The translations under genes and the position numbers were made by a program. Below the pieces are notes generated by a model. The model saw nothing but the letters and a program-made list of their open reading frames with translations, was not told the origin of the DNA and ran no database searches. A stretch of 64,000 bases of DNA. Source: Arctopsyche grandis. Its lineage: Eukaryota; Arthropoda; Insecta; Trichoptera; Hydropsychidae. Location: assembly GCF_051622035.1 (NCBI RefSeq), contig NC_135356.1:31472290-31536289 (forward strand), given 5' to 3'. Within the stretch, counting starts at the first letter, position 1; every line of letters starts with the position of its first letter. This document shows, one piece after another, positions 3,424 through 55,492 of the stretch.

Positions 3424-3879
3424 TCAAAATAACAAAACTGCTAATACATATAACACAAAATAACAAAAACAAATTATAAAGCATCTTCCACAAAGGTATC
3501 CATTAACACCCTTCAAGAAAGCAGCAATGTTATTAGAACTTCTAATGCCTTCAGGAAGGGCATTATACATTTGAACACCTCTGTGAAAAACACCTCCTGC
3601 AGTTTTAGCTTTCTTAACTCTACCTATAATTAATTTATTTCTATTTCTTGTTTTATAATTATGTATATCTCTATTCCTAACTAAACTTAATTTACAATCC
3701 AAATAAATGCCCAAATACTTAATATTATCTACTACTTCTACCACTCTCCCATCCATAATCACATCACTCACAACTTTTTTATTATTCATCCACATCATCT
3801 TAGTCTTACTTAAGTTCACTTTCAGTTTATTCTCACATAACCAATCACTTAAATACCGTAATTCCCTAAACATCATCAC
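3424..3879 (-). pseudogene. Internally deleted non-LTR retrotransposon ORF2 fragment
   Basis: The frame reads LSDWLCENKLKVNLSKTK, then KYLGIYLDCKLS, the post-catalytic part of LINE reverse transcriptases. It then jumps to KTRNRNKLIIGR and MYNALPEGIRSS, the usual C-terminal end. About 150 residues normally between these blocks are missing. The catalytic FADD box is absent. A short AAAT-type tail (ATAAATAAATAAAG, minus strand) ends the copy inside the 120-bp repeat. Most like the Jockey superfamily; a dead 5'-truncated copy. Confidence 0.75.
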
Positions 3880-4144: not shown

Positions 4145-4610
4145 CCAGCAGCGTGGCTCGGTCGTTAAGCTTCTGCTTAACACTGAGAGGCGCCGAGTTC
4201 GATCCCTTGAGCTGACCTCGATTGAAAAGAATTTTTCTGAGTATATCTGTAATGCTGCTGGTCAGACCAGGATTTGTGACTCCTGGTTGATCGTTTCCTA
4301 TCAGAGTTTGCCAATTTTCTCTGATTTCATTGTTGAAACGATTCCCGATTAAAAATTGGCTAAAAATCCTTCCTACCCACTATGTCACCACTATTAGAGT
4401 ATGATTAATGTAAATATTACAATAAAAATGTATGTACAATTCATAGATGTCTCGTTAATTGTCGAGTTTAAGTCAGTGTCTCGTAATTTAGCGACTTATA
4501 TAATAAAAAAATGCTGTATTGTTTGTAATTTGGCCAGGAAGGCGCATTGGGGTTTACCTGTAATGCCTTCCTGGTATGAAATAAAAAAATAAAAAAAAAA
4601 TAAAAAAAAA
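4145..4610 (+). mobile_element. SINE copy 1 (tRNA-derived head, LINE-type 3' hairpin)
   Basis: The head has a box-A-like TGGCTCGGTCG at 4154 and a box-B-like GAGTTCGATCCC at 4195, the internal RNA polymerase III promoter of tRNA-derived SINEs. The body includes GGATTTGTGACTCC and GAGTTTGCCAATTTT, shared with the copy at 8499-8893. The 3' end is a perfect 10-bp hairpin, CCAGGAAGGC (4534-4543) with GCCTTCCTGG (4565-4574), around a 21-nt loop like that of the two LINE families here, then an A-rich tail. The element interrupts a unit of the 120-bp repeat. Not a functional tRNA: no cloverleaf is formed. Confidence 0.8.
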
Positions 4611-8498: not shown

Positions 8499-8893
8499 AC
8501 TGGGTTCGATCCTGTGCAAATCTTTAATAGATTAGCCCAGGATCGAATTTGGATATTTGTGACTCCAAGTCGATTGTTTCTTGTCAGAGTTTGCCAATTT
8601 TATCTGATCATTGTTGAAACGGTTCCTCAAAATTGGCAAAAAAAAAATCATCTTCTGTATATTTAATATATGTACAATTTGTAAAAAAATATGTACAAGT
8701 ATCCATAGATGTCTATCCATAAATGGATTAATTTATTAATAAATTAATTAATTGTTAATTTCGTGTTCTTCAGCTTCTCGAAATACAGTGATTTGTGTAA
8801 TAAAAATACTGCATTGTTTATTATTAATTGTCTAGGAAGGCACATTGGGGTCTTCCTGTCAAGCCTTCCTGGTATATATCTACATATGTAAAA
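8499..8893 (+). mobile_element. SINE copy 2, 5' part damaged, abutting a hAT-like end
   Basis: Begins at a box-B-like GGGTTCGATCC, shares TTGTGACTCC and AGAGTTTGCCAATTTTA with copy 1, and ends with the same hairpin: TAGGAAGGC (8833-8841) with GCCTTCCTG (8863-8871), one U:G pair, 21-nt loop, then AAATAAATAA. Immediately upstream, CGCTACGCCACTG at 8486-8498 is a hAT-type terminus (CAGTGGCGTAGCG on the minus strand); its partner end was not found. Confidence 0.7.
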
Positions 8894-21043: not shown

Positions 21044-21553
21044 GATACAAGGAATTACACATTGGACACTTCGTGTGACGAGGTTTTGACTCACGTTAGT
21101 GCCATCTGTGGATTAAAGGATGGCATTGTGGTTTCCCCTCTTAATGCACGAGGATCTTATACATCCTTTAAGGTATCTGTTCCTGCTTCTGTCGCTGGCC
21201 TGTTATTTTCTGCTGGTTCTTGGCCTGCTGGTGTTCATTTTGGTAGATTTAAAGATTGGGGAATGAGCATTAAGAATATAAAATCGAATACTAATACTAC
21301 TTCTATGTCTGCCACTGACGTTGTTTCATCATTAGAGCTGCGCCCAAGTGTTTCATTTGCTGATGTTTGTTCGGGAGCTGCTAAATGTTTGAAGCCTGAT
21401 ATTAAAACTACGTCTGCAAGTATTGGTGAATCTTCTATGGAAACGGTCGCAGTGACGTCTATGTATGCCTCTTCTCCTACATTTGCCTCTTCTCCTACAT
21501 CTGCCTGCTCAAATGGTCCTGATAGTCGTGATGCTGTTGTGACTGTGTTGTGA
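21044..21553 (+). pseudogene. LINE-A ORF1, C-terminal part
   Basis: From about residue 15 the frame reads YTLDTSCDEVLTHVSAICGL, then SFKVSVPASVAGLLFSAGSW and PAGVHFGRF. This is the C-terminal domain found in gag-like ORF1 proteins of CR1/Jockey elements (SFKVSxP ... WPxGVxxRxF). It is followed by Ser/Thr-rich sequence. The N-terminal zinc finger or esterase region is lost by 5' truncation; the Met at 21011 is flanking DNA. Family likeness judged by pattern only. Confidence 0.6.
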
Positions 21554-21611
21554 CTGTGTTCTGCTTCCTCTTCCGTTTCGTCTCCGTTGGCTCAATCAAA
21601 ACTGCCATTTC

Positions 21612-24096
21612 TTGTCTCAAAGAAAGTCACGCGCCAAACTGGGAAACCGAAAATTGGTAATTTATTACCAAAATGTACGAGGTCTCAGGACAAAGCTGGC
21701 TGCGTTTAATTCAGCCGTTTCTACTATTTGTGATGATATGGTAGCACTAACGGAAACATGTTTGACTTCATCATTTTTTGATGCTGAACTTTTTGATTCT
21801 TCCTGGAGGGTGCATCGTCGCGATAGAGTTGATCGACGTGGTGGTGGTGTATTATTTGCTTGTCGTGATTGGTTTCGGTCAGTCCGGATGACAAATTTTG
21901 AAACTCTATCTGGTGAGGACTTATGGGTGAGAGTTGATTTTATATTTTTGATAATGTTTATATGTGTGGTTTACATTCCGCCTGCTGCGAAAGAGGACGT
22001 ATACGAGTTATTGTTTGTGAATATGATGAATTTGCGTGATTTTATGAATGAACGTGATATATTGTTAATAATGGGTGATTTTAATCTACCTAGTGGTAAT
22101 ATTCATGTCCGCAATAAATTTAATTTTGTGATTTCCTATTGCGACATAATACAGATTGGTTCACCCATTAATCCAAGTATGCTTGATATTATGTTAGTGA
22201 ATGAATGTAATGTGTCAGCAACGATGATCCAATGCCCAAAAGGAACAGCGATCATCCCTGAGGACCTATATCATGATGCATTACATATTGAGCTTTTGTT
22301 TATTTCTTCTGTGAGAGCTGCTTCAGCTTGTTCATCGGTTGGGGTTTCCTCACTGCGATGGAATTTTGCTCGTGTTGATTCTGAATTGGTTTATAATGAG
22401 GTTCGTTCAATTGACTGGCGCCAAATGTACCTCATGAATACTGGTGATGCTGTTGAATATTTGTATTATACACTTTATAATATTTTTTAGCTCTGTCTTT
22501 GACCAGAGAAAACCATCCCTTAATGCTAGTTTGGCTTCACAAATTGGTACTGAGGGTGTCGGTATAGACATTCCGCGGGTATCGCTGGGAGATGTTAGGA
22601 TGGCTATTATGAAGCTGAAGGGGTCTGTTGGGCCTGACGGTGTGCCCCCTGACGTATTAAAGGTATGCTGTAATTCGCTTTTAGAGCCTCTTCAGTTTAT
22701 TTTTAACCTTATTCTTGCTTCTGGTAATTATCCTGAAAAATGGAAATTATCTAGAGTCATTCCTATTCATAAGAGTGGCTCTAAAAATGAGGTTGAAAAT
22801 TATAGACCTATTGCTATTATCTCGGCTATTCCCAAAATTTTTGACATCATCCTTCACCGTTTGATTCTTGCGCAGTTTAAAAGATTATTGTGTGATGAGC
22901 AACATGGTTTTACACCCTGTCGTTCCACTACCACTAATCTCGCCTGCTTCACACATTTGATCATGTCTAAAGTTGACGTTGGTCAGCAAGTTGATGTAGC
23001 CTACTTTGACTTTCGTAAAGCCTTTGATCAAGTCAATAATGACGCTCTTTTGATCAGGTTAGCTGAAGTGGGTTTTTCAGCGCGTCTTCTTAAACTCTTT
23101 GCTTCTTATCTTAGTGATAGGAAGCAATTTGTTAGATATGGTCTTTATGAATCTCCTTCATTTTTTACTCGATCTGGTGTTACTCAGGGGTCCACTTTAG
23201 GCCCATTACTATTTACAATTCTTATTAATAACCTCCCTAAAGTTTTATGTAATGCATCATGTCTCTTGTTTGCTGACGACGTTAAATTATTTTTTGCTGT
23301 CAAGGATGAGAGGCAAGCCTCTCTCCTTCAAGCTGATATAAACGCTGTCTTGGAGTTCAGTTCTAGTTTAGGCCTTGAACTTAATTTAAACAAATGTGCA
23401 TTTATGAGCTATGGACGTGCACATTCGCTCTATTGTCACGGATATTCCATTAGATCCGTCTTGTTGAAGCGTGTGGAATCTATTGTCGATTTGGGTATCA
23501 CTTTTGATCCTCAGCTCACCTTTCACAACCATATCAAGAAAGTCGCTGACGTTTCCTTTCGTCGACTTGGATTTGTTTTGAGATATGCAAGATTATTCTC
23601 CAATCCTTTGTCTTCTCGCTTGCTTTTCAATTCGCTTGTGAGAAGTAAGCTAGAGTATAATGCGATTGTGTGGAATCCGCATGAAGCAAATTACTCTCTG
23701 ATGATTGAGAAAGTGCAAAAAGCATTTCTTCGTTTCCTATATAGGAAAGAATATGGGTATTACCCATATCTCTAACCCACTCCTTTCCTTTTGGGCATGC
23801 TTGGGTATAATTTCCTTGAACTTCGGAGAAACTTCTCATTAATTGGTTTCGTTCTCCTGCTCTTACGTGGTAATACGTCATGCCCGTTGTTGCTGGAGCA
23901 GTTGGGACTTTATGTCCCTAATCACTATGTGCGTGGTAGACATCATCATTTGCTGGCTGTACCTCCTGCCCGCACAGTCCTTTTTCGAATGGCTCCTATT
24001 CCAAGAGCTATCCGACTTCTTAATGAAATCGTTGCTGCCGAGACTGAATGTGATATTTTCCACCTTAGTGAGCATAAATTGTCGAAATTACTCTAA
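21612..24096 (+). pseudogene. LINE-A ORF2: endonuclease plus reverse transcriptase, two lesions
   Basis: Residues 15-230 form an APE-type endonuclease: LVIYYQNVRGLRTK, RRGGGVLFACR, VVYIPPAA, MGDFNLPSG. A shift at a run of T bases near 22485 moves to the RT frame (22444-23775) with NYRPIAIIS, FTPCRSTTTNLACFT, VAYFDFRKAFDQV, GVTQGSTLGPLLF and the FADD box LLFADDVKLF. The C-terminal domain has RSKLEYNAIVWNP and YGYYPYL, then a premature TAA at 23774, where the minus copy has a Tyr codon. The same frame then continues through GNTSCPLLLEQLGLYVPN to SKLL at 24096. Two point lesions thus inactivate an otherwise complete ORF2, suggesting a fairly recent copy. Confidence 0.9.
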
Positions 24097-24396: not shown

Positions 24397-24440
24397 GACC
24401 ATTGTGGCGCTTTAGGAATTCCTGTTATGCCACAATGGTC
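24397..24440 (+). other. LINE-A 3'-terminal hairpin
   Basis: GACCATTGTGGC (24397-24408) is a perfect reverse complement of GCCACAATGGTC (24429-24440); the 20-nt loop is GCTTTAGGAATTCCTGTTAT. The AAAT-repeat tail begins 7 bp later. In L2/CR1-type LINEs a 3' stem-loop is recognised by the element's RT; that role is inferred here. See LINE-B (54958-55000) and the SINEs. Confidence 0.8.
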
Positions 24441-26201
24441 TGTTTAAAATAAATAAATAAATAAATATCTAACATAAAATCGTGAAGAGTAGACATATTT
24501 AAAGGATCGATTAAAATCGTGGAAGAAAAATCCGGTAAACTGCCAACAGGAGTAAACTGTCACTTTCGGTTAACGGGTGTTCACGAAATGTGAAGATTTT
24601 TGGAAAAAATTTTCGCTTTTTGCGCTTTTTTCACTTTTTGCATAATATTTTTTTATAATTAATTTTTCAAAAACAATCTTATTTTTTTCATCTTTTATAA
24701 TTCAATAAGGTCTATGCAAAGAATATTTTCCATTTTTATTCCGATATAAAAAAGATTTTTTGAAAAAAAATTCAATTTGACCAATCTTTGCCTGCCCCCC
24801 CCCCCCCAAGAAAAAGATGAAATGACGTCTGTGATTGTTTTCTCCAGAAAGTAAAAGCCGCTTTTATGCCGCATTATTTTATGATGCATTCTATTTACCT
24901 AGGACAAGGGTTGAAACGAAATATACAATGTAATTTATGGATCTATTTTGCTTTTGCCGTTTTTCTTGTACCTAAATTTGTTTATTCCCATTTTTGAAAA
25001 TTTTATTTATTTTTTACCCTTGGTTTTTAGCGTGATGGAAAGAAGAAAATTTTTGTTATATGGGTGGGGGGGGGACAATTTTTTTTAACCCTGGGTGGGC
25101 CCCCTTTGACTCCTGGCATGCACTAATTTCAGTCCCAGTCCGCCACTGTGTAGGCATATACATAAGTATACATATTTTGATTTCATTTTGTAGAATTATG
25201 TTATAATTTATAATATTCTTGATAACTACATATTAATAGTATGTATGTATGCCCCAAGTTTATTATGCACAAACATACATACATAACAACCGATATGGAT
25301 TACATGTAGAGGTTGTGATCGAGAAATCTCGTCTCGAGATTTCTCGAGAAATTTTGATCCTCGTTTTTCGAGAATATTTTATTCTGAAATTTCGAGATTC
25401 TGATATCTCGAGAATATTTTTTATGAATCTCGAAAATATCGAGAATATTTTTAATTTATCACTACATGTTTTTTTCAATAAACTGACTGATTTGTATACT
25501 TGTTAACTCGTATAATTGTGTATTGTAACTCGTAAAAAGTATTGTAATATGTATAGATGGTCAGTATTTTTATTATTTGTCCGGTAAGTTATTATTCAGT
25601 CATCATATAAGTACATACATACATATACACATGTTACAACGAAATCGCACCATTTTTAGTTACATATACATATGTTTGTGCATGTAGGTACTAGTCACTA
25701 GTGGGAAAATACATATTCGGTTTCACTAAAACACTAGTGAAAATATATTTTCACTGACAATATGACCCCACTGTAACACACATAAAACAAAGATGTTTGA
25801 TTTATTATTTATTTATTCGTGTATTTGTTCCTTATATATTAATAAATTTATAGTCAGTATTTTAATATGAATAGATGGTCAGTAGTTTTATTATTTGATC
25901 AGAATGTTATTTTGGTCACAAAAACACGGGCAAAGGCGGGTACAACACTGGGAATTTTATAAAATTCTTTGTTACATATTGTTATTTTTACTATTTTAAA
26001 TTACTGTTTTATATTTTTATTTTCTATTCATGCCTTCTTTTATAATATTTTTTCTATATAATTTTACCTTTTTTCTATTCAATGTTCTATTGCAGCGTTT
26101 CCCAACCTTTTTTGACTCGCGTACCACTTGCTGTAAATTGTACCACCATATAAAAATGATTGTATTTCATGAAATTTGTTTTTGCAAGTGTAATTATTAT
26201 A

Positions 26202-26682
26202 CTATATATAAAAACGGACTGTCGCTAAATATATATATTTGTATATTTGTTCATTTTTTTCATTTTTTTCAGTTTTTTCATTTTTTTCATTTTTATCATA
26301 TTTTTCATATTTTTCATTTTTTTCATATTTTTCATTTTTGTGCGTTGGTGGCGCCGGGGGCGCTGGGGGCGAAGCCCCCGGGGTGCCGAAGGCATCGGGG
26401 CGCTGGGGGCGCTGGGGGCGCCGGAGGCGCCGGCGGCGCTGGGGGCGAAGCCCCCGGGGTGCCGAAGGCATCGGGGCGCTGGGGGCGCCGGAGGCGTCGG
26501 TGGCGCTGGGGGCAAAGGCGTCGGAGGGTCGGCGATGCACAAAACGTAATTCGTAATCACTTCTTAATTCGTGCATCAATTTCTTTCCGAAACCAGTCGA
26601 TTCAATATCTTTAACTTTATTTTTATTCGAGTTTCAATTCCTTTTCGAAACCACCCGTTGAAATCAACGGGTCCAACACTAG
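26202..26682 (+). mobile_element. Helitron-like element, copy 1
   Basis: Starts CTATATATAAAAACGGACTG, ends with the perfect 9-bp hairpin ACCCGTTGA-AA-TCAACGGGT (26653-26672), then CCAACACTAG. A hairpin about 10 nt before CTAG is the classic Helitron 3' end. The interior is a T-rich TTTTTTCAT array followed by a GC-rich minisatellite (26342-26530) with GGGGGCGAAGCCCCC hairpins. A copy at 60739-61323 has the same ends and plan. No Rep/helicase, so non-autonomous. Confidence 0.75.
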
Positions 26683-31836: not shown

Positions 31837-33345
31837 TAGGGCTGCCATAAGTGTCGGAGCACCAACGGGGACAGCCCCCTAAAAAAAAAAAAAAAAAACA
31901 AACAAAACAAAACATTTTTATCGATATTCATAGCTGTATTATAAAAAAAATATACAACATTTCAACAAGTAATTGGAACTAAACAAAAATTGAATTGAAA
32001 GAAAAATTTAAAGATTGATAATAGGTTTTTTTTGTGGAAGCGTCTGTACCAAATCTAAAATAAATAAATATAGATAATTGGACGATTCAAATAAATTTAA
32101 CTAAATGAAACCTTACATTAACATTGTATTTCATGTACTGTAGCCTATTCTTCTATCGCCTTCACTCTTCTCTGATTTCCGTGACTTCATTATCATCGCT
32201 CTTCTTTGCCCAATCATATTTTTCCGATGTTTTCGTTTTTTGAAGTAACTCTTTTTCCCCTTTAATATCATTATAGAATTCAATGCATGACATTTTATAA
32301 TTTAAAGTACATTGAATTATGCTTTTTACTGTGTCAATAGAAAGCGAATTGCGCTCATCTGTCCATTGATTTTTAATTAATGACAACACACGTTCAACAT
32401 GTGCATTGTGCGGTGGGATGGCGAACAAGTATTGGCACATTTTCAGTAGATTAGCTTTTCTTTCTGTCTCTTCAGTTTTTTTGAAATAGTATAACCATTT
32501 ATCATGCACATCTTTCGTTTTCCATTCTTCGGCTTTTTTATTTTCGATAAATGACTTCATATACTTTACTTCCTCATAGATTGAATCCGTGAACAATATT
32601 CCCATTTCACTTAAATAAGCAATAGTTTTTTCAACATGTTCCCATTCGGGTACTTCATGGAGAAGCATCCATGAAAAAACATCATATTTCGCCAGTGGAA
32701 CTGACCACTTTGCCAAATAATTAATTCCAACGTTGTAAAAATTCTCTACATCTTTTTCAAATGCTTCTACTTGTGTCGTCGTAATGTCCATGTGTTTTTT
32801 CAGTTTATTGTATGCCTGGGTTGCTTGATTACCTAGATATTTACTATTATTGAAAATTATTATATATATATATATCTATGTATTGAAAAACTTACATCAA
32901 AATATCAGTCCTCTTCGATCAGAAACAAACAGAACAAACGGATATTATCAGCAGACAGTAAACGAACTGCGCGCGCTTCGTACTTGTCAGTGTCATTGTC
33001 GGTGTTGCCAGCTGGCGAAATTGGGCAGTGGCCGGCAGTGGGCATCCGCCGCTCTCGTTGTCAGTGTTGCCAATATGCGCGCGCGTATCCATATTAGATA
33101 TTAAGTGGGTACAATTTTTGACGTGTAAACGTCTTTCCTTTTAGGACCACAGTATAGAGAGTGCATCCTGAGGTTTCTTGGTTCAAAAGGTCTTGTTCGA
33201 TAGATATTAAAAAATAATTGAATAATTTTTTTAAATGTCTAAATTTTGAAATTGACGGGGACAAATGACTCTCGGACTGGGACACCGGGACACAGACCTC
33301 GAAACTGGGACATGTCCCTGTCAACGGGGACGTATGGCAGCCCTA
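31837..33345 (-). mobile_element. hAT element, 1.5 kb, TSD GTGTACGG, partial transposase
   Basis: TIR TAGGGCTGCCATA at 31837 and inverted at 33345; perfect TSDs GTGTACGG (31829-31836 and 33346-33353). GGGACA/TGTCCC motifs repeat near the right end. Contains a 209-codon C-terminal transposase fragment. The right end from 33090 is part of the duplication with 56750-60720, so the element inserted before that duplication. Confidence 0.85.
32162..32791 (-). pseudogene. hAT transposase, C-terminal 209 residues
   Basis: Ends with the hAT dimerisation block: LLKMCQYLFAIPPHNAHVER, then VLSLIKNQWTDERNSLSID. This matches L-F-x-IP-x-x-NAxVERxFS and the W-T-D-ER-N-L-S extension. Preceding helices (WSVPLAKYDVFSWM) fit the pre-dimerisation region. 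The BED finger and the first catalytic Asp region are absent upstream, so it is a deletion derivative. The start Met is arbitrary. Confidence 0.75.
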
Positions 33346-34510
33346 GTGTACGGGCATGTCGATTAGTGGTGTTGACGTGTGCGTCGAAATGAGCTGCGTC
33401 GTTCGCATATTCGACCAATCGCTATCGCCGTGGGTGAACCCCCACTCCCAGCCATTACATCGGAAGCGCTGCTCGCAGTCGGCAGAAGTGGTGCGCCCAT
33501 CGCGGTGAGTGCACGTCGCTGGGCTCTCAGCTCTGAGTTCGTGCCAATGCGAACCGCAATGTTCGCCGCCATTTTCCGGCAGAAGTGCAGCGGCCATCGC
33601 GGCGGGTGCGCGTCGCTGAGCTCTGAGCTGCCGCTACCCGCCCCCCCCCCACCACCACCCCCAACCCCCCGCAGGTACGCTATTATTGTAGCTTTATTGT
33701 TGCCCTTTCGATCGTTGGTCGCGTTTGCCGTGGGGTGGGGTTGATTGCTTTCGTCGATCGATTGCACAAGTGCTGGCCGAGGCGTCTGCGACCAAATAAT
33801 CACAGCCACCGCGACCTTGGAATCGCGTCTCGTCATCCCCCTCGACTGTGGCGTCGTTTCCTTTCCGTTTCTCTCTCTCTATCAATATTACCACGCGATC
33901 CGCGCATCACTGATCCGGCTAGTGGCAGAATCGCATTTTACATTTTGTGCTAATGCAGATCGCAATGTTCGCCGCCATTTTCCGGCAGAAGTGGTACGGC
34001 CATCGCGGTGAGTGCACAACGCTGAGCCCTGAGCTGCCCCTCCCCTCCCCTAACGCTATTATTGTAGCTTTATTGGCTACGTTCACACTACCGATATCTA
34101 CACCCGACATTTTCGAATTTTCCATATCCAGTTCCTATATTGCAACCTGTGGTTGCTATTTAGGAACTGGTTATGGAAAATATCGGTAGTGTGGACGTAG
34201 CCATTGTTGCCGCGTTTCAATCGGTTGGTCGCGTTTGCCGTGGATCGATTGCTTTCGTCGATCGATTGCACAAGTGCTCGTCGATTGATTGCACATTTGC
34301 CACCAAACAATCAGAGCCACCGCGACCTTGGAATCGCGTCTCGTCATCCCCCTCGACTGTGGCGTCGTTTCCTTTCCGTTTCTCTCTCTCTATCAATATT
34401 ACCACGCGATCCGCGCATCAGTGATCCGGCTAGTGGCAGAATCGCATTTTACATTTCGTGCTAATGGAGAATCGCAATTTTAGTGCACGTCGCTGAGCTC
34501 TGAGCTGCCC
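33090..34510 (+). repeat. Segmental duplication, copy 1 (partner 56750-60720)
   Basis: From ATTAGATATTAAGTGGG onward this block matches 56750-56967 plus 59662-60720 almost base for base. It is noncoding and internally repetitive: GCCGCCATTTTCCGGCAG, TCGATCGATTGCACAAG and ACCTTGGAATCGCG each recur two or more times. The 121-codon ORFs at 33379 and 59736 are nearly identical only because the DNA is duplicated; they include proline homopolymers and no domain. Function unknown. Confidence 0.8.
34075..34202. mobile_element. 128-bp MITE with GGCTACGTTCACAC TIRs
   Basis: Starts GGCTACGTTCACACTACCG; the complement ends it at 34202. The parallel repeat unit at about 33695 (GCTTTATTGTTGCC) is the empty site, giving a 3-bp TSD ATT. 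Copies: 60415-60525 (17 bp of the right TIR deleted) and a left half at 35187-35243. The 3-bp duplication and GG start suggest a Harbinger-like family. Confidence 0.75.
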
Positions 34511-37613: not shown

Positions 37614-37809
37614 ATGTATGTAATATTGAAACGTGTCATTGGGTCTTTGGTACTTTTAATGTACTACATATCTTAATATGGTTGTCACCTTTCATTCGCG
37701 CTTGTAACCGAATACTTTTTCACCTAGATTGCTCGTCACATATTGCCATTGTCAGCGATTTTCGAAAATGATACTTTGCAAGACTAAAATATCTGCAAAT
37801 TGTGGCATT

Positions 37810-39260
37810 TGAAATACTTTTTCTATCCTCTCGACAGTATCTTATCGCGCATTGTCATTTTTAAGGAATTTTTGACTCGGCAGGAGTACCAGTCTAGAGA
37901 CCATCCATACTGCGTAGTTGTGTGTATGTCCATTACAAAGGCGAGTGTCTAAACACACATCAGCTAATTGCCCTCGTCGCACATGTTCTTTTTTCGCTCG
38001 TACATTGGCGGAAAATATGATTCGTCCTTCTGGATCAATTTTAATATTCGCTTCGTAGGCAGCAGGATATTTTAACAGCCACAGTACTGAATTTGGAACA
38101 TTTTTAAAATGTTCTCCCACATACTCAGCGTTTTTACTCGATCTTATAAAAGCTGATTAAACTTACAGTAAACTATGGCATCATTTGGCAATGAGTATTG
38201 TTGTCGAGTATTTATTACGATACTTTGAGGAACCTCTTCACCGGTTGCTATTTAGGTCTGAAGCTTTTCCAACCCATGCCTCATATGGTTCTCTGACAGG
38301 TCTTTAGTAAGAAGTATCGTCCTGGCCATAGATATAGAAGAACTTATTATAGAATAACTTATGTTATTCTATATACATATATCTATGTATGGTCCTGGCA
38401 CTTTCTACGATGGTTCAGTTGTCACGCTCCGCTCTGCAATTACATATGTACATATGTTCCGCCTTTGTTCTTGTCGGAAAGCTCTCCTTTCTAAATGTTT
38501 TGCCCCATGGGTATTAAAAGTACGTCGCTATTTTTGCTAGCCTCTGGATTGTAGGGAGTAGCATTTAAATCCCAAAGTGATGGAGTTGCGGTGGCCACCT
38601 TTATTACTTTAATTACTTTTTATTTATTCTCTATTGACACCATTACTCCATCTTTGATTGTGATATAATTTATCATTAATAGTCTAGGTAATTTTTTTTT
38701 GCCGGCACATTAACATGTCTAATCGAATCGACGGCACGAGAGACAACCTTCAAATCACAAACTAGAACGCGTTGAATCATTCATCGAAAGATGTCGATTA
38801 TATACCGAACATGGGGACGGTATACATATGTATAATCGGCCTCAACTAATCTTCTCGCAATACTTGGTTCGAATATATTTGACGGCTCAATGTAACAATC
38901 GTCATAAACGTCGTCATCATCTATGCAATTTCTATTACTGCACACAGAGACGATCTAGATCATCGTAAATATTTTGGTCGGAAATTCTGATGTTGCGTGT
39001 TTCAACACGAAAGTCTTTTTGACGTATTATTCTCTAAACCGCCGTTTTAAAATTCGCTGAAATTTACATGTTGCATTCCGCTAGGTATGGAAAAATTCTT
39101 TAAATTGCACACGTGAGTTTTACTATATTATATTTTTTGCATACGCGATATTATAATAGTTGGACTAGGGACGCCTGCAAAATCAGTTTGTTGGTGATTT
39201 TGTGTAATTAGTTCTTTTTTACAACTTATCCGATTGCAAATAGCGGTGGCTGGGGCGAAT
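37810..39260. repeat. 1.4-kb duplicated block, copy 1 (partners 41230-42690, 62880-64000)
   Basis: Near-identical over long stretches with 41270-42690 and in part with 62880-64000, in direct orientation. Beyond OGT it holds a short minus-strand frame, SLWDLNATPYNPEASKNSDV, present in all copies (near 38520-38620), which I cannot assign. ATAGAATAACTTATGTTATTCTAT forms a hairpin near 38350 (24 bp, first 12 complementary to last 12). Confidence 0.8.
37842..38290 (-). pseudogene. OGT (sxc): O-GlcNAc transferase catalytic-domain fragment, copy 1
   Basis: Minus-strand frames give [65 protein letters not shown] and [16 protein letters not shown]. These are consecutive blocks of the C-terminal GT41 domain of OGT (family: [23 protein letters not shown]). 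OGT attaches GlcNAc from UDP-GlcNAc to Ser/Thr of nuclear and cytosolic proteins. The copy has frameshifts, stops and a deletion in the VAQQLG stretch; the usual Pro is Arg (DTRLCNG), and sequence after NGHT is scrambled. Further copies at 41300 and 62945. Confidence 0.85.
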
Positions 39261-40700
39261 TATTGAATGTTCAGCTTTGAATCTGTGCAAGAAAGTTTGC
39301 TCACTTTTGGAATGTAAATCATTACGACTGATCGCATGTTTTGGCAAATTTAAAAATACTCGTCTTGGATATTTTTACTTTAAGGCATTAAGGTCAATTA
39401 TATCTTTGTCTGTAATTTTTTTCTGTTTTCCGATACATATTGTTAAATTATATGCTCGGAATAACGCTATAAATAATAACATTTTCGGTATCGCGAACTC
39501 CTTACAATGTGTCTCAAGAAATAAGAAAATGTTTACTATAAAGTGTTGTTTTTTTAATATGTACATTGATAATGTGATTTTGGTACATTTTTCAGTACGA
39601 TATACATGTGAATTTATATGAATAAACAATGATGACACGACAGGTTTTCTAATTAGTGTATGGAAAAAATATATAATTTGTCTTTCCACAACAACTCATT
39701 CCCGAGCCGATGGTTGACTCTTCGTTTGTATCTCCAGGGAGCGATGATTGGGTATCTGATAAGCTCAAGATCGAATTGCAAAAAAAAAAACAAACTTTAT
39801 CTATTGTTACTATGTACGTACATAGATAAATTAACTACACTAAACAAAAAATCACACTATCTTCTGATTCCAATTTGTCATATTCAAATCAGAATATCAT
39901 TCACATGAAGAATAAAACTGCCCTGCAGATATCAGGCGCTATTCTGTAGATATTCTATTCGCCATTACCACTTTGTGTTTGTTGTTGAAAAAGCATTCCT
40001 TTTCATCGGGACTGTAGCTTTCTTCGTCCCCAACTTCGGGATTGTCACTTATAGGGAATTCGCTTATGTGTTGCTCATGGTGAGGCTCAAAGTCGGTAGC
40101 CAGCCTTGTGTTGGTCGTGCTGGTAGAATGCATACCTTTCGACGGCACCATCGAGTAGATATCCCTTTACTGGATTTTTACTCGACGATTGATTCTTCGT
40201 CGTAAAATATATCGGTAAAAATACATTGGTAAGTTTTCTTGTCGAGAATCCGAAATGTGACTAGTTACTTTTCTTGTAACGAGTCACAAAAAAAATAATT
40301 TCTCATTAAATATGAGCAATATAATAAAAACAAATACTTTAAAGTCTTTGTTTTTATTATTTAATATAGTATTTAATACATGTACTATATGAAACACTAA
40401 TGTTTGTGTCTTCGTCGCTACGTGGTCAACCGTTGTTTGAGTGGTCGGTCGTTGGGTGGGAATAACACGTTCGATTTATTTTTTTTTCGATTCAAAGGAT
40501 TCAAATTCCCTGCAGGGAGTGCAGCCAGATGGGGCTCCACCGGGGGCGCAGCCCCCATGGGACCCCGCCGAAGGGGGCGCAGCCCACATGGGGCCAATAT
40601 CAGGGGCGTCGCAAGGGGCGCAACCTACGGGGCCTCTGTCGGGGGCGCAGCCCCTAATAAAATAAATAAACATATTTTTTTATATATCCTTTAATGGTAT
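39260..40700. other. Mixed noncoding DNA with GC minisatellite
   Basis: No recognised gene. A minus-strand ORF 39939-40151 (EFPISDNPEVGDEESYSPDE) could be an exon fragment but has no family signature. 40525-40660 is a GC-rich array with GGGGGCGCAGCCCC units after a T-run, like the arrays at 26342 and 61027. Confidence 0.45.
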
Positions 40701-40701
40701 A

Positions 40702-40896: not shown

Positions 40897-41229
40897 ACTT
40901 TAAAAGTCTAATTTTCTTTATTTATGTATTTATGTATACAGAGCATTCCATTTTTTGCAAGACATGGCTAGCATCGGCGACACCGGAGTCAGGACTCGAC
41001 ATTTGAGACCTTTTCTCTCTTAATATTCTTTTGATGCATGTAGCACGCTGATCTAAATTACTTTACATCTAAATTAAAAATATTTAAAAAAAATCGTATT
41101 CAAGCTGCGACCTATCATGACGTCTTCGTACATCACGTTGTAGTCTCTTCTGGATGTAACTTTTTCCTGAATTTTCTGCGTCGTACTGCCAAAACTAAAC
41201 CGCTGACAACTAGACGTATGAAAAGTGTT

Positions 41230-47127: not shown

Positions 47128-49602
47128 TTATTTAATGTTATGGAACTGTTGCCAAACAGTTTTCACTTAATTTTAAACTACATTACATTCATAGATTTAA
47201 TGTTGAATAATATGTTTATGAAGAAAAAAAGAGAATATCAGTTAAACATTGCCATTGTGAATAAGATCAGTGATGGAGTTGCGGTCGCCATGCCTCTTAT
47301 ATTATCATTTGTATATGTAATATTTGTATGTAGTTTTTGTCATACTGGGTCATAGTGACACAACATTTGTACCAAAACCTTCGCTTGACCACAAATTTAT
47401 TTCCCAACTACTCACCAAACAAATTCTTTATAATATACATATTATATATTATATTTGTATGAAGATTTTGTGGTTAATAGATGTGAACAAATATACCTAC
47501 GTATATAAAGAGTTGTATTCGTCTGCAAATGGAACTTTAAAGACCTGTACATTTTCCACTAATTAAATTTACACGTAGGTGTGTACGATTTTTCTTGTTG
47601 TATTTATGTATGAATATATACGTGTGTGTATCTCTTATTTATGTGTTTGAGGTAGAGTTCATTCCATTTGAAAAACAGCATGAATGATTTTTTTCAAAAT
47701 ATAAAGCAAATTTATTTGGTATGGGTTTGATGGCAATCTACATATATGTTAATTGTAAACATGTATAATAATCATGTTTTTACTATAATTTTTGTACATA
47801 TCTTAAACTGTGTAGTCCACTAGTTTCTTTGGAGCAATCTGGAAGACGATTGTGCATGATTAATTTAAATAAATAAATAAAAATAAAATTTGCAAAAGAG
47901 CGTAACCTATTTAATTTCAAGTAAAAATAGCGTTTGCAATTTACCTTTTATTTGTAATGGGTTTTGAATTTATATTTTGTAAATGTGATGTGAGTTTGAT
48001 CGCATTTGTACCTGTGTGTCCAATTTTACTTGATGTTTTACATTTATATTTGTTAATAAAATTGAATTTGTCAAAAAAAAAGTACAATTTCGTATTATTT
48101 GTAATCTTATGTTTTTCATTATATTTTCACCGTTAATTGTTCAGAAATGATTTTTTGCTTTTATAAATGTAAATAAAATTGAATTTACAAAAAAATAACA
48201 CTATCGTATTATTTTCATCCTGATGCTTTTAATTATATCTCTTACAAAGTGTACCCAAAAGTAGAAGAATATCCATGCAGAATATCCACAGTAGAGTAAG
48301 TATAAAATTCTCATTATGCTTCCTTACCAAAATCTCAATTTATGATTATGAATAAGGATTGATTTATTTCATCATAATTGACAGGACGCCGAAACAAAGT
48401 AAACCTTTTACAAAAGTAAAATCTGTTCTTATTTCGATGATCAATCAATCATCGTTAACGTTTCTTCCTTGTCATTTTCTTCCTAGTGAATGATATTGGA
48501 AAAGTGGCAACACTGTTACCACTCAACTGTCAAAATTTATAAAATTACTAAGGAATGCTTGTGAAATTGTATTTTCGCCTGTATAATTAAATATATCCAA
48601 TTGAACCAATTGGACTACAAATTCGTCATAAGGATAGGGAAAATATATTTTAACTAGGGACATAATACATATGTACATACACATTCCGGAAGTCACGTCT
48701 TGAATGCATGGGCAGGTAAGACAAATCCTAAATTATTTTTTTTTAAATCTTGTTCTCGACGTTAGGATCTTTTTAATGTTTTCATAAATACTCGTGATAA
48801 ATCTGCATTAAATAGTTTATACAAATATTAAAATTTTTCGAGTAAAATCATCATTTGAAAATATTATTCAAAATATCTAACTACATAGGTCTATTATTAT
48901 AATTATGAAAAAATATTCGTTTAACCGCATTTCTTAAGAGGGTGACTTTTTGATCCTTATTGCTTTAAAATGCTTAATGATTCACATGATTGAATCGATT
49001 TTGAATGATGATTTGGGTGAACTATCATCAATGTGCACATATTTTCAATGAAGTAATATAAAAGAACACTCAATTTACAAAAGCAAAAAACAATAAACTA
49101 AGATATTATTATTTAGGTGAGATAGTTTATTGTAGCGAAGATGTAAAAACATATTATCATTAAATAGCAGCGATATAAACACAACTGCGATTTTGAGATT
49201 CATCCGATTACTCTGTGGTCATGTAGAAATGCGATTTCCCGAAGAAGCAGAGCTGATTTTGTACACGGAAAAGATTAATTAGACAGCCTGGTAATTAAAT
49301 ATAGGTATAAACAATTATTTAATACCAATTAGTGAAAAAATATGATCGCAAATATGCATAAACAATATCGTGATCTTAAATTTATAGTTGCCGAGAAATT
49401 AAAGGCTGATTCAATTCAAACATTTACATTCAAGTCATTACAAGTCATACATTTCATGCAGGAAATACGTTGACTTACATGTGGTGTATAAATATTGATT
49501 GGGTCGATAAGAACAGGACAAGAAAAAATGATTATTGAAATAGTCTCAATAAATTATTCAAATCTTCATAGTAAAAATATTTCATTATTTTTAGTGTCGC
49601 AA
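47128..49602. other. Mostly unassigned AT-rich DNA, one LINE tail
   Basis: GTGATGGAGTTGCGGTCGCC near 47270 matches the duplicated block (42060). At 47813-47880 a degraded LINE-B-type 3' end is present: TTCTTTGGAGCAATCTGG loop, stem with 8 of 12 positions pairing, AAATAAATAAATAAA tail. No other feature seen. Confidence 0.5.
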
Positions 49603-50329: not shown

Positions 50330-50430
50330 AAAGTAAAATAAAATAAAACAAAATATAAATAAAAATAAAATCACAGCGAGGCTCAAATGAAGAGAGTAGA
50401 TTAAGATTCCACTCATACATCACATTCAAA

Positions 50431-51295
50431 TTAAGAAAGTAATGATGAGCTCAGGTCACCAGATAAATATGTTAAAATAATATCCGATAACCTACGCTCA
50501 CCTAGGTGGAAAATATCGCATTCAGGGACGGCAGCAACGATTTCATTGAGAAGTCGAATAGCTCTTGGTATAGGAGCCATTCGAAAAATAACTGTGCGGG
50601 CAGGAGGTACAGCCATCAAATGATGATGTCTACCACACACATAGTTATTAGGGACATAAAGTCCCAACTGCTCCAGCAACAACGGGCATGACGTATTACC
50701 ACGCAGTAGCTGGAGAACGAAACGAATGAACGAGAAGTTTCTCCGAAGTTCAAGGGAATTATACCCAAGCGTGCCCAAAAGGAAAGGAGTAGGATAGAGA
50801 TATGGGTAGTACCCATACTCTTTCTTATATAGAAAACGAAGAAATGCTTTTTGCACTTTTTCGATAATTAGAGAGTAGTTTGCTTTATGCGGATTCCACA
50901 CAATCGCATTATACTCTAGCTTACCTCTAACAAGCGAGTTGAAAAGCAAGCGAGAAGACAAGGGGCTGGAGAATAACCTAGCGTATCTCATGACAAATCC
51001 AAGTTGACAAAAAGGAAACGTCAGCGACTGTCTTGATGTGGTTGTGAAAGGTGAATTGAGGATCAAAAGTGATACCCAAGTCGACCATAGATTCCACACG
51101 CGTCAACAACACGGATCCAATGGAATATCCGTGATAATAGAGCAAATTCGCACGTCTATAACTCATAATGGCACATTTACTAGTATTCAGTTCAAGCCCT
51201 AAACTGGAACTGAACTCTAAAACAGCGTTAATATCCGCTTGAAGGAGAGAGGCTTGCCTCTCATCCTTAACAGCAAAGAATAATTTAACAGTTTT
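50431..51295 (-). pseudogene. LINE-A ORF2, thumb and C-terminal part
   Basis: Minus frames read VKDERQASLLQADINAVLEF, LGLELNTSKCAIMSYRRANL, VDLGITFDPQFTFHNHIK, then after a shift LGFVMRYARLFSSPLSSR, GKLEYNAIVWNPHKANYS, YGYYPYLYPTPFLLG and CPLLLEQLGLYVPNNY. It keeps the Tyr where the plus copy has a stop. At least one frameshift near 51005. Upstream half lies at 55040-55434 beyond the LINE-B insertion. Confidence 0.85.
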
Positions 51296-52268
51296 AATAG
51301 TTCTTGTGAGCTTTTACAATATGATCTTAATGCTCTTCATGATTGGTCGTTAACCAACTGCTTGCCTCTTAATGTCTCCAAGTGCAAGGTTATGTGTTAC
51401 TCCAGATCCAGATCCACCCCCGATCGTACCTTTCCATATCTTGTTGGTAACTTTTTATTGAACTGGATCGATTCAACTGTTGATCTTGAGGTTGCATTCT
51501 AGAGTGACCTAAATTTCTCTGTTCATATCGACTCTGTGTGTTCCTCTGCCTCACGAATGCTTGGGTTTGTCTTTCGTAATTCTCGACACTACCATAATCC
51601 CGCTGTTTTGAGATTGCTGTACAATGCTCTAGTTAGGAGTATCTTGGAATACGCCTCTATAATCTGGAATCCTTACACTAAGTCTCTATCTGTGAAGCTT
51701 GAACTTGCCCAAAGACGATTTCTCAGACTGCTTTATAAGGAGCAATATGGGATTTACCCATACTTATTTCCATCAAAATTCGTCATGGGTATGGTCGGCT
51801 ACACTTCTCTTGACCACAGGAGGAGTGTTGCCCTCATCAAGTTCTTGTTTTCCATATTTAGAGGCTGTATCTCCTGTCCGTCTATCCTGGCTGAGTTGGG
51901 CCTTCATGCTCCAGAGAGTGTGGTATGGACCCCAGTGGCGTATATTGGGTGTGTGCTAGGTGTGCGGCGCACACCCGTGAAAACCAAAGACCACATAAAG
52001 TAGTATTTTAATACAAAATAATGTGTTGTTGTATAAACAGGCATTGATGTGTATGGTGTATTTACCGCGTGCGCTAAATGTATGGTGTATGGTGTGGTGT
52101 GCAGTCTGCAGCGTGTTGTGTGATGTTAGATGTAGTTTGTGCGCCGCGACGAGAGAATACCTATGCCGTGCAGCAAATTGGTGGGTTTGGTTGGAGTGTG
52201 CAGGCGGATATTCGCTTGTATAGGTTTGTTCGCGATATTAAGACGTACGGTGTGCTACGACTTCAGAG

Positions 52269-52310
52269 CACCGCGCACCGCACCGCACCGCACCGCACCG
52301 CACCGCACCA
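52269..52310 (+). repeat. CACCG pentamer microsatellite
   Basis: About eight CACCG/GCACC units, just upstream of the transposase start at 52411 and within the hAT element. Confidence 0.9.
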
Positions 52311-52410
52311 CTCGGCAATTGACCGAATGCGATGCGACACGTGGTCTCGTACTTTTTCGCACATTCGTATTTTTATGGTCATATCTCAGTCATACCTCTA
52401 ATAACTAATA

Positions 52411-54520
52411 ATGGCTAACAGTGTTCAAGACATTTTAACTATTCCGTTTTCAAATAGAAGTTTTGAGATAAAATTAAAAATAATTAAAGATGGGAAACCG
52501 TGTCCGTCTCTTCCAAATTTATCCAGTTTGCATAAAGAAAAAACAAAAGTTTACACTAGACATTTTTGCGTTTCAAATTATAAAAAAATCGAATGGATTA
52601 CAGGCTGTGAAATTCGATCCAAACTTTTCTGCTGGCCATGTTTATTGTTCTCCAAAGATATTAATGTGTGGAACAAAGAAGGATTTGCTGATCTCAACCA
52701 TTTGACAGCAGCACTGAAGAAACACGAAGGATCGCAGGCACACGTTCAATCATTTCTTTCCATACAAATGTTTGGCAAACAACGAATCGACGTATTAATT
52801 GACAGTCAACGTAAAGCCGAAATAAGTCGACATAATGAACAAGTAAATAAAAATAGAGATGTTTTAAAACGAATTATTAACGCAATAATCTATCTAGGAA
52901 AACAAGAACTGTCCCTGCGAGGTCACGACGAGTCATGTAATTCCGTAAACAAAGGCAATTACATTGAATATCTAAATGCTCTTCGAGAATATGATTCTGT
53001 TTTAGATACTCATTTAAATACTGCTACTACCTTTCGTGGTACTTCTCCAAGTATACAAAATGACATAATCGAAGCAATCGCTCATGTTATTAAAGTTCAT
53101 ATAAAAAATGAAGTAGAGTCAGCAAGTTTTGTTGCTATTATTCTCGATGAAACTTCAGATATAATGACAAAATCACAGCTCTCAACAGTTTTACGTTTTG
53201 TATGTAAAGGCAATGTACATGAACGGTTTATTAGTTTTACAGACGTTAGTGCTGATAAAACATCTAATGGTCTATTCCGTCACGTGGTGAACATAGTTGA
53301 AGAATTTAAAATTCAAGACAAATTGGTTGGACAGACTTATGATGGAGCAAGTGTAATGAGTGGACACGTAAATGGTTTGCAATCCAAAGTCCTCAATGCT
53401 TATCCTTTTGCTCTTTTTACACACTGTTATGCTCATGTATTGAATTTAGTATTGCAGCAAGGTCTTTCTGATATTAAAGAAAGTAAATCATTTTTTCAAA
53501 CTTTAAATGGATTGTCTACATACTTTTCAAAATCTTCCAAAAGAGTATTCACCCACAAGGTGGAATTTTACATCTCGTTTAAGTAGCACAGTACAACAAT
53601 ACAGAAGTCAATTTACAGATTTTTTTCGACATGTTATAGAAAATTGTGAATTATGGGACACAGATACTGTTATAAAAGCACGAGGGTTTTTAGGCTTTTT
53701 AGAGGATTTTCAAACAATTAAACTTCTTCAATTTTTTTCAAAACTGTTTGGAATAACTGATGTTTTGTATAACATTCTTCAATCTAAATCTTCGGACGTT
53801 TTATATTGTTGTAAAAAAATTAATGATGTTTTGCAGCAACTGAAATACGAAAGGGATAATAATTTTGAAATGTTATGGAATAATTATTTAAATGAAAAAA
53901 ATGATGATCATGATCGTAGGCCACAAAGATTAAAAAATTATTCAGAAGTAGAAGATAAAACTTCATTTCGTCAATTATATTTCAAAATAGTTGATAGCAT
54001 AATCGCACAAGTCGAATGTAGATATTCTTCACTTTCCAAATTAGAATATTTTCACCTTCTTTGTAATGATAAATATGACGAATATAAAGAAAATTTTCCA
54101 AATGTTTTAATTAATAAATTAAAAGATTTTTATGGATCACTGTTTGATTATATTCGATTGAAAAACGAACTCATTGTGCTATATTCCAGCTCTGAATTTT
54201 CAGAGAAACCTGTTCATGAATTAATACAATTCATGACAAAAAATAACCTCGAATCTGGTTTTAAAGAGGTGTTTAAGCTGAGAGAATTAATATTAACGAT
54301 ACCAAGCAGTACAGCTTCAGCAGAACGTTCTTTTTCGGCGCTGAAAAGAATAAAAACTTGCTATAGAGGTACGCAAGGTCAAGATAGATTATGTGGCCTT
54401 AGCTTAATTTCAATAGAAAAAAAGTTATTGGTGGAATTAAAACAGAAAGACACATTCTATGCAGACGTGATTGAAAAGTTTATGTCTCAGAAACGTCGCA
54501 TTGAACTTATGTATAAATAA
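52411..54520 (+). pseudogene. hAT transposase, TTF-type zinc finger, one frameshift
   Basis: Frame 1 (52411-53586): TTF-type zinc finger with TGCEIRSKLFCWPCLLFS (residues about 66-85), KKHEGSQAHV, then the DUF4371-type core with SFVAIILDETSDIMTKSQLS, VGQTYDGASVMSG and THCYAHVLNLVL. Frame 2 (53507-54520): PTRWNFTSRLSSTVQQY, through IPSSTASAERSFSALKRIKT, the hAT dimerisation block. The shift lies near 53540, between FSKSSKR and SPTRWNF, where a few usual residues are also missing. This architecture is that of ZMYM1-like hAT transposases. Otherwise uninterrupted, so the element was active recently. Confidence 0.9.
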
Positions 54521-54957
54521 CTAATAAATTAAACATTTTTGTAATGCAAAACGAGTATTTTTTTTTAATTGCTAATTTTATACCCTATGCCCTACGGCAT
54601 ACACAGCACACCCGGTATTAACACCCACCGTCCGCCACTGATGGACCCGCCATCGTCCCCTTTTTCACACTCCTTTGGCTAGAACTGTGGCATTTAGTTA
54701 TTCTCCCATTCCTCGCGGCCTCCGTTTCTTAAATTCTCTGGATGGTGCCATTGACATTTGTCATGTCTCTCTTCGTTCTCTGCACCAATTCCTAAGTTAT
54801 GGAGGTCGCGACCATTTAGAAAGGTTGAGTTAGTGTTTTTAATTATGATTTTATTATGATTTCATGTTTTATTTAGTTATCCTTTCCTTATTTGATTTGT
54901 ATATGAAATTTGTTTATTTTACTTGTATTTTTTACTATTGTACTTCTTAATATTTTT

Positions 54958-55000
54958 AGCACACTCGTCGCTTTGGAGCAATCTGTTAGACGAGTGTGCT
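54958..55000 (+). other. LINE-B 3'-terminal hairpin
   Basis: AGCACACTCGTC (54958-54969) pairs perfectly with GACGAGTGTGCT (54989-55000) around a 19-nt loop GCTTTGGAGCAATCTGTTA. The stem is unrelated in sequence to LINE-A and SINE stems, while the loop matches both. Confidence 0.85.
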
Positions 55001-55492
55001 TGATTAATTGATTTTGTAAAATAAATAAATAAATAAACATAGTCTGCAAACAAGAGACATGAAGCATTGCGTAATACTTTAGGGAGGTTATTAATAACTA
55101 TAGTAAAAAGTAAAGGGCCTAAGGTGGACCCCTGAGTTACACCAGATCGCGTAAAATATGAAGGAGATTCATAAATAACATATCTAACAAATTGCTTCCT
55201 ATCACTAAGATAAGAAGCAAAGAGTTTAAGAAGACGTGGAGAAAAGCCCACGTCAGCTAATCTGATCATAAGAACGTCACTATTGACAAGATCAAAGGCT
55301 TTACGAAAGTCAAAGTAGGCTACATCAACTTGTTGACCACCGTCAACTTTAGACATGGTATAATAAGAAAAGCAGGCAATATTAGTGGTAGTGGAACGAC
55401 ATGGTGAAAAACCATGCTGCTCATCACACAACAATCTTATTATAAATTTAAATTTAAAGATAAATTTATAAATTTAAAGATTAAAGATAAAA

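What the first reader, a model, noticed from the sequence alone, without database searches (positions are those of the whole stretch)
24397..24440. Conserved-loop, variable-stem 3' hairpin shared by LINE-A, LINE-B and a SINE
LINE-A (24397-24440), LINE-B (54958-55000) and the SINE (4534-4574; 8832-8872) all end in a hairpin just before an A-rich or AAAT-repeat tail. Stems are GACCATTGTGGC, AGCACACTCGTC and CCAGGAAGGC, with no sequence in common, each perfectly complementary in its best copy. Loops of 19-21 nt align: GC(T/A)TT(A/G)GG...CTGT(T/A)A. Compensatory change of a whole stem under a conserved loop suggests the loop plus a sequence-free stem is the mark read by the LINE reverse transcriptase, and that the SINE is mobilised through it. 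3' stem-loop recognition is known for L2/CR1-like LINEs; stems replaced this completely would be unusual.
Basis: partly seen in the sequence, partly recalled or inferred. Interest (0 to 1): 0.88.

Follow-up and report, generated by a model that had tools for sequence, protein, structure and literature searches.

The report
Shared tail hairpin of caddisfly retrotransposons
Two related jumping-gene families and a short parasite element in a caddisfly genome end in the same kind of RNA hairpin, with a similar inner part and an outer stem that differs in sequence but stays paired, which probably marks their RNA for copying; the principle is known from other organisms and this looks like a further case of it.

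Summary
The four hairpins exist as described. The host is a caddisfly: a 500-aa window stretch is 96% identical to an Arctopsyche grandis protein. LINE-A and LINE-B are related (RT C-termini 43% identical over 208 aa).

The "loop" is not open: it is predicted to fold into an internal loop, a 4-bp apical helix and a variable apical loop.

Stem change is real but overstated. LINE-A/LINE-B: 9 of 12 pairs changed on both sides, none broken. LINE-A/SINE1: 4 changed on both sides, 6 same, 1 one-sided, 1 broken. Pairs 3, 10 and 12 are the same in all three.

Best reading: an RT-recognition hairpin of the stringent LINE/SINE type. Specific loop with swappable stem is shown for zebrafish L2 LINEs (PMC4176376, passages); conserved loop bases with variable stems are published for monocot L1s and SINEs (PMC3747384, passages). 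New here: host, motif, internal-loop form. That LINE-A or LINE-B moves this SINE is untested.

The genome search did not complete 12 times, so consensus and covariation tests are missing. Known in principle, modestly interesting.

The parts
24397..24440 (+). LINE-A 3' hairpin: 12-bp perfect outer stem, 24397-24408 with 24429-24440; inner part 24409-24428 (G-U pair, 3x3 internal loop CUU/UUA, apical helix UAGG/CCUG, apical loop AAUU)
24446..24466 (+). LINE-A (AAAT)n tail
21543..22490 (+). LINE-A endonuclease ORF fragment (Exo_endo_phos, E 2.7e-05); by eye against P0001 this copy lacks the endonuclease-RT linker
22438..23775 (+). LINE-A reverse transcriptase ORF (RVT_1, E 4.9e-27)
54958..55000 (+). 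LINE-B 3' hairpin: 12-bp perfect stem, 54958-54969 with 54989-55000; inner part 54970-54988 (internal loop GCUU/UUA, apical helix UGGA/UCUG, apical loop GCAA)
51290..55035 (+). LINE-B element, 5'-truncated, inserted in a second LINE-A copy; ends in (AAAT)n; right end ambiguous by up to 3 bases (possible duplication AAC)
52405..54520 (+). two ORFs inside LINE-B, DUF4371 in the first (the second was not scanned), read as a nested hAT-type DNA transposon by inference
50346..51289 (-). second LINE-A copy, part 1, 87% identical; homology ends before the 3' hairpin
55024..55438 (-). second LINE-A copy, part 2, 89% identical (its first bases overlap the LINE-B tail)
4534..4574 (+). SINE copy 1 3' hairpin: 10-bp perfect stem plus a G-U pair at each end; inner part 4544-4564 (3x3 internal loop CAU/UAA, apical helix UGGG/CCUG, apical loop GUUUA)
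8832..8872 (+). SINE copy 2 3' hairpin: one stem pair changed to U-G; internal loop 4/4 (ACAU/UCAA), so the CWU/UWA form is not kept
4154..4205 (+). SINE copy 1 tRNA-like promoter stretch: A-box-like 4154-4164, B-box-like 4195-4205 (consensus recalled; ARAGORN calls no tRNA)
8502..8512 (+). SINE copy 2 B-box-like GGGTTCGATCC (consensus recalled)
47777..47881 (+). degraded LINE-B-like 3' end, 73% identical; apical sequence largely kept, fold lost
3424..3879 (-). LINE-like 3' end by eye (no Pfam domain) followed by AAAT repeats, without this hairpin (contrast)

Best explanation
The hairpin is the 3' recognition signal of a group of stringent-type LINEs in a caddisfly genome. The LINE protein most likely reads the inner part: the internal loop (CWU/UWA in its commonest form) and the short apical helix that starts with a U-G pair. 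It needs the outer helix mainly as a helix of about 10-12 bp that presents this part just upstream of the AAAT repeats where reverse transcription starts. The outer stem can then drift through compensated changes. The SINE carries the same inner part and probably uses an RT of this LINE group. Its own stem suggests that it took its tail from a third, unsampled family nearer to LINE-A. Shown here: the hairpins, their place at the 3' end (for LINE-B by its insertion junctions), the LINE-A/LINE-B relationship, the compensated pair changes and the similar inner part. Inferred: RT binding, selection on the inner part, and mobilisation of the SINE.
For: LINE-A and LINE-B RT C-termini are 43% identical over 208 aa. 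In the nucleotide self-search (E up to 0.01) the only match between the LINE-A query and the LINE-B 3' piece is the AAAT tail, yet the hairpins align in the inner part. Outer stems: LINE-A/LINE-B 9 of 12 pairs changed on both sides, 3 same, 0 broken; LINE-B/SINE1 7 both, 3 same, 1 one-sided, 1 broken; LINE-A/SINE1 4 both, 6 same, 1 one-sided, 1 broken. The inner helix varies with pairing kept (UAGG/CCUG, UGGA/UCUG, UGGG/CCUG). Inner motif with at most 1 mismatch and stem score at least 10: 4 places among 13 motif matches in the window, 7 among 2281 in 300 Markov windows (the motif was drawn from these elements, so this is partly circular). With 2 mismatches and stem score 8: 8 start positions in the window, mean 1.2 and maximum 4 in 60 Markov windows. 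Among 121 loop-motif matches in 123 fetched records the best stem score was 8.0. The LINE-B hairpin lies about 35 nt from its insertion end. Precedent: in zebrafish, ZfL2-1 with the ZfL2-2 stem still moves at about half the wild-type rate, while a loop swap nearly abolishes it (PMC4176376, passages).
Against: Three families and one intact copy per LINE hairpin allow no covariation statistic. Loop similarity is moderate: LINE-B/SINE1 is matched by 97 and LINE-B/SINE2 by 314 of 5000 dinucleotide shuffles. SINE2 has a 4/4 internal loop with UCA, not UWA. The best fold holds only 0.55, 0.18, 0.26 and 0.10 of the ensemble for the four hairpins. Hairpins as strong are common in this window. This LINE-A copy seems to lack the protein region expected to bind the hairpin, and LINE-B is 5'-truncated, so the reader protein could not be examined. 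No bench evidence.
Confidence: 0.65

Rival explanations
1. Ordinary tail sharing by descent: the SINE copied its whole hairpin, stem included, from an unsampled LINE-C, and each LINE protein reads its own stem and loop together. The similar inner part is only common ancestry.
For: 58 SINEs with a partner-LINE 3' end are reported in PMC3747384 (passages). The SINE1 stem is 7 of 12 identical to LINE-A's, as expected of a relative's stem. PMC4176376 recalls UnaL2 work in which stem changes cut retrotransposition strongly (passage).
Against: Under drift alone the outer stem should break rather than stay 12 of 12 paired in both LINEs with 9 pairs changed; the degraded LINE-B-like copy did lose it. 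This argues for selection on pairing, not against stem-specific reading.
Confidence: 0.35
2. The stems were renewed in jumps by template switching (fold-back copying), which makes a perfect new stem around a kept loop in one event, rather than by stepwise compensation. This concerns the origin of the stems and does not exclude RT recognition.
For: Described for RNA hairpins in PMC8794818 (abstract start and passages). Both LINE outer stems are 12 of 12 Watson-Crick and differ at 9 pairs.
Against: LINE-A and SINE1 still share 6 pairs and three pairs are common to LINE-A, LINE-B and SINE1, which looks more like stepwise change. No intermediate sequences were available.
Confidence: 0.25
3. The hairpin serves 3'-end processing, RNA stability or export rather than RT recognition.
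For: Its position at the RNA 3' end; no functional assay exists. No known Rfam family was found: none at gathering score in the window, and only matches at E 0.64-4.9 around the LINE-A and SINE1 hairpins (LINE-B was not searched in that mode).
Against: A SINE with Pol III-type boxes and LINEs presumed to be Pol II transcripts share it, so a processing role tied to one polymerase is less likely (inference).
Confidence: 0.15
4. Coincidence: unrelated AT-rich 3' ends that each have a hairpin, with loops alike by chance.
For: Many hairpins of similar strength in the window; weak loop similarity of LINE-B to the SINE copies.
Against: Pairwise loop similarity between LINE and SINE or LINE and LINE is matched by 4 to 385 of 20000 mononucleotide shuffles; random window stretches reach the LINE-A/LINE-B, LINE-A/SINE1 and LINE-B/SINE1 scores 13, 3 and 79 times in 20000; same position before the tail in related LINEs; 7 of 2281 chance motif matches carry such a stem.
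Confidence: 0.07

Closest known systems
L2-clade LINE 3' stem-loops (zebrafish ZfL2-1 and ZfL2-2; eel UnaL2) and carp HAmo SINE/LINE (PMC4176376 and PMC2653535, passages)
   Same: The element ends in a stem-loop before short repeats; for ZfL2 the protein reads the loop specifically and the stem generally, and stems can be exchanged; for HAmo a SINE shares the LINE hairpin.
   Different: The conserved loop named for UnaL2 and HAmo is GGAUA; here the similar part is an internal loop plus apical helix of another sequence, and the apical loop varies. Different host and LINE families.
Monocot L1-clade LINEs and SINEs with conserved loop bases and variable stems (PMC3747384, passages)
   Same: Stem-forming bases vary with compensatory changes, a few loop and flank bases are conserved, and SINEs share the structure.
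   Different: Plant L1 lineage; conserved loop UCU and 3' flank CGAG; published energies -10.8 to -17.7 kcal/mol against -20.4 to -27.2 here.
CR1-mobilised passerine SINEs TguSINE1 and PittSINE (PMC5729268, passages)
   Same: tRNA-derived head and LINE-derived tail with a putative RT-binding hairpin and a terminal microsatellite.
   Different: The SINE tails are highly similar to the partner LINE and end in an 8-bp repeat; here the stems differ and the repeat is AAAT-like.
Lepidopteran SINEs HaSE1-3 (PMC3272025) and Plutella SINEs (PMC8010984) (passages)
   Same: SINEs of the sister order, some tRNA-derived; the HaSE1 tail resembles that of a LINE.
   Different: The LINE named for HaSE1 is HaRTE1.1; 'hairpin' and 'stem' occur 0 times in either main text.

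Membership tests
Stringent-type LINE with 3' stem-loop recognition | stem-loop in the 3' UTR just before the terminal repeat | tested here: met
   LINE-B terminus fixed by insertion junctions
Stringent-type LINE with 3' stem-loop recognition | a SINE shares the 3' structure | tested here: met
   inner part and pairing similar, stem sequence only partly; SINE2's internal loop deviates
Stringent-type LINE with 3' stem-loop recognition | LINE protein binds the stem-loop and retrotransposition depends on it | not testable with these tools
   needs binding and cell assays
Stringent-type LINE with 3' stem-loop recognition | basic tail-binding region between endonuclease and RT | tested here: inconclusive
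   seems deleted in this LINE-A copy (by eye); relative P0001 has 16 K/R in a 68-residue linker segment
L2-type GGAUA hairpin | apical GGAUA loop | tested here: not met
   apical loops are AAUU, GCAA, GUUUA and GUCUU
tRNA-derived SINE | Pol III A and B boxes | tested here: inconclusive
   box-like stretches at 4154-4164, 4195-4205 and 8502-8512 by reading, consensus recalled; ARAGORN finds 0 tRNAs
CR1/Jockey-type LINE clade | RT phylogeny with reference elements | not tested
   names in the listing include 'transposon BS' types; no reference tree was built
APE-type non-LTR retrotransposon | endonuclease plus RVT_1 domains | tested here: met
   for LINE-A; LINE-B is truncated and its C-terminal piece hit no Pfam family

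The most novel reading that the evidence does not exclude
The inner part (internal loop CWU/UWA plus apical helix starting with U-G) is a portable priming tag read by several LINE families of one host, with an outer helix under selection for pairing only, so that LINEs and SINEs with different stems share one pool of reverse transcriptases. The change from U and U in both LINEs to A and A in SINE1 at facing positions of the internal loop would be a non-canonical pair covarying inside the tag (SINE2, with A and C, does not follow it).
Probability: 0.2. Interest if true: 0.6.

Novelty: new variant of a known kind. Interest (0 to 1): 0.38.

Why it matters
If the inner part alone is read, natural families with different stems form a ready-made mutant series for how LINE proteins choose their RNA, and they would show how a SINE can use a LINE without sharing the whole tail sequence. 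A structure model of the inner part could also find SINE/LINE partners that sequence comparison misses.

Tried and rejected
Relatives outside the window. Viral contigs with the LINE-A RT: no pattern match; with the 14-row alignment A1: 176 stretches matched a pattern, none confirmed. Genome contigs with A1: 78 matched, 2 confirmed at 32% identity in records titled as bacterial MAGs, not used further. These tools warn that records of the window's own genome may be left out.

Rfam gave nothing at threshold. No covariance model was built and the pair-count tool was not used: MAFFT placed the inner helix out of register in A3 and A4, so pairs were counted in a script on a register set by hand. Target duplications: nothing convincing for SINE1, SINE2 or LINE-A (best 7, 8 and 9 bp, AT-rich). 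NCBIfam gave only a sub-threshold group II RT match for LINE-A and nothing for LINE-B. The chance-only rival and the fixed-gap loop count are discussed above.

Literature: ten searches, each listing at most 20 papers of up to 1043 found. No listed title or abstract start appeared to describe this hairpin in caddisflies. The library holds open-licence papers only. Of the eight papers cited I saw passages and abstract starts, no whole text.

A draft of this report called the looser scan not significant; on recount it exceeds all 60 Markov windows, and that was mended.

Full report
Where the window is from. The 500-aa stretch at 4851-6350 (-) matches an Arctopsyche grandis protein at 96% and a second one at 91%; these were the only 2 hits. 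A. grandis is a hydropsychid caddisfly. In the listing for the LINE-A RT (best 120 of 1012 hits; only 7990 candidates scored) the first named relatives are Mythimna loreyi (50%), Euphydryas editha (47%) and Colias eurytheme (43%), all Lepidoptera, the sister order (sister relation recalled). The window holds LINE pieces, BED/hAT and DUF4371 transposase ORFs, and tandem repeats.

The hairpins. Energies are -27.2, -23.6, -26.5 and -20.4 kcal/mol with z -7.4, -4.5, -4.9 and -3.6; 0, 0, 0 and 1 of 200 shuffles fold as well. As hairpins they are not rare here: of 64 candidates on the + strand ten score above LINE-B, and of 69 on the - strand seven score above LINE-A and LINE-B (that scan listed LINE-A and SINE1 on the - strand only and SINE2 on the + strand only). 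What sets them apart is their place and inner part.

Structure of the loop. The 19-21-nt loop is predicted to fold further. In LINE-A and SINE1 a G-U pair closes a 3x3 internal loop (CUU/UUA and CAU/UAA). LINE-B has GCUU/UUA and SINE2 ACAU/UCAA. Then follow a 4-bp apical helix (UAGG/CCUG, UGGA/UCUG, UGGG/CCUG) and an apical loop that differs in each (AAUU, GCAA, GUUUA, GUCUU). This is a thermodynamic prediction on single sequences; the best fold holds 0.55, 0.18, 0.26 and 0.10 of the ensemble.

Stem comparison. Counted on 12 pairs in a register set by hand. LINE-A/LINE-B: 9 changed on both sides, 3 same, 0 broken. LINE-B/SINE1: 7 both, 3 same, 1 one-sided, 1 broken. LINE-A/SINE1: 4 both, 6 same, 1 one-sided, 1 broken. 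LINE-A/SINE2: 4 both, 5 same, 1 one-sided, 2 broken. LINE-B/SINE2: 7 both, 3 same, 2 broken. SINE1/SINE2: 9 same, 1 one-sided, 2 broken. Pairs 3, 10 and 12 are identical in LINE-A, LINE-B and SINE1. The stems have diverged with pairing kept; they are not wholly unrelated.

Significance. Loop similarity by end-to-end alignment: LINE-A/LINE-B 22 of 20000 mononucleotide shuffles score as well (23 of 5000 dinucleotide), LINE-A/SINE1 4 (3), LINE-A/SINE2 55 (4), LINE-B/SINE1 155 (97), LINE-B/SINE2 385 (314), SINE1/SINE2 0 (0). With at most one motif mismatch and a stem score of at least 10 the window has 4 places among 13 motif matches; by comparison with the list these are the four hairpins. 300 Markov windows have 7 among 2281, in 7 windows. 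The motif came from these same elements, so this measures the stem given the motif, not the motif itself. With 2 mismatches and stem score 8 the window has 8 start positions at 6 places, two of them new (24285 and 35930) and probably chance; 60 Markov windows have a mean of 1.2 and a maximum of 4. A fixed-gap loop search in the window was at background, 8 against 7.47, but could not match the LINE loops.

The elements. LINE-A has endonuclease and RT domains, is broken by a frame change and a stop, and by eye lacks the linker between endonuclease and RT that the relative P0001 has. LINE-B is 5'-truncated, lies inside a second LINE-A copy and is itself split by transposase ORFs. Its left junction is at 51289/51290 and its tail ends at about 55035, with at most AAC duplicated. 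This gives an independent definition of its 3' end: hairpin, about 35 nt with AAAT repeats, end. The two RT C-termini share 43% over 208 aa. The SINE has Pol III box-like stretches by reading. A degraded LINE-B-like end at 47777-47881 keeps most of the apical sequence but no longer folds. A LINE-like end near 3424 (-) has AAAT repeats and no such hairpin: its last 51 nt fold at -2.4 kcal/mol, z +0.56; over 101 nt -16.9, z -1.71, with another hairpin further upstream.

Mechanism. In zebrafish L2 LINEs the stem-loop is needed, the loop gives specificity, a stem from the other LINE is tolerated (about half the rate for ZfL2-1), a disrupted stem is not, and a basic region between endonuclease and RT binds it; the same paper recalls that UnaL2 was sensitive to stem changes (PMC4176376, passages). 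The same division of labour explains the present pattern: inner part kept, outer helix kept mainly as a helix. The SINE probably uses an RT of this group, perhaps through a tail taken from an unseen family. Binding, selection and mobilisation are inferred.

What is known. PMC3747384 (passages) reports SINE/LINE pairs and describes monocot L1s and SINEs with variable stems, compensatory changes and conserved loop bases, so the stem change has a precedent. PMC5729268 and PMC2653535 (passages) show hairpin tails shared by CR1 or L2 LINEs and SINEs. The caddisfly repeat survey PMC8881205 mentions LINEs and SINEs; 'hairpin', 'stem-loop' and 'Arctopsyche' occur 0 times in its main text. Template switching can create and maintain perfect stems (PMC8794818, passages) and is a possible route for stem change.

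Limits. The genome search was unanswered 12 times (calls listed under tried and rejected), so there are no genome-wide copies, consensus or covariation test. Three families and four hairpins cannot carry a covariation statistic. The LINE clade was not resolved.

Noticed in passing
window 50346-55438: Three nested insertions: transposase ORFs inside a 5'-truncated LINE-B inside an inverted second LINE-A copy, giving a relative age order.
   Followed up: partly
window 26219-26493 and 60807-61132: Two distant places share TTTTTTCAT-type tandem repeats of 8-10 nt next to G+C-rich GCGCCGGGGGCG-type repeats.
   Followed up: no
window 33304-33603 and 59661-59960: 300-nt blocks 99% identical, one of several repeat families linking about 33-36 kb with about 60-62 kb.
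   Followed up: no
window 34117-34181 and 60457-60521: The highest-scoring hairpin of the scan (arms ATTTTCCAT..., 20-21 bp), present at two places.
   Followed up: no
window 4812-6386 (-): Long uncharacterised ORF; the search found only two relatives, both Arctopsyche grandis (96% and 91%): perhaps a lineage-restricted gene or element.
   Followed up: partly
window 57379-59265 (+): 628-aa open frame with zf-BED and hAT dimerisation domains, possibly an intact hAT transposase.
   Followed up: no
window 37761-42236 and 62897-63963: Direct repeats spaced about 3.46-3.48 kb, partly 94-100% identical, with further copies near the window end.
   Followed up: no
window 3424-3879 (-): LINE-like 3' end with AAAT repeats but without this hairpin, so such tails here need not go with the structure.
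   Followed up: partly
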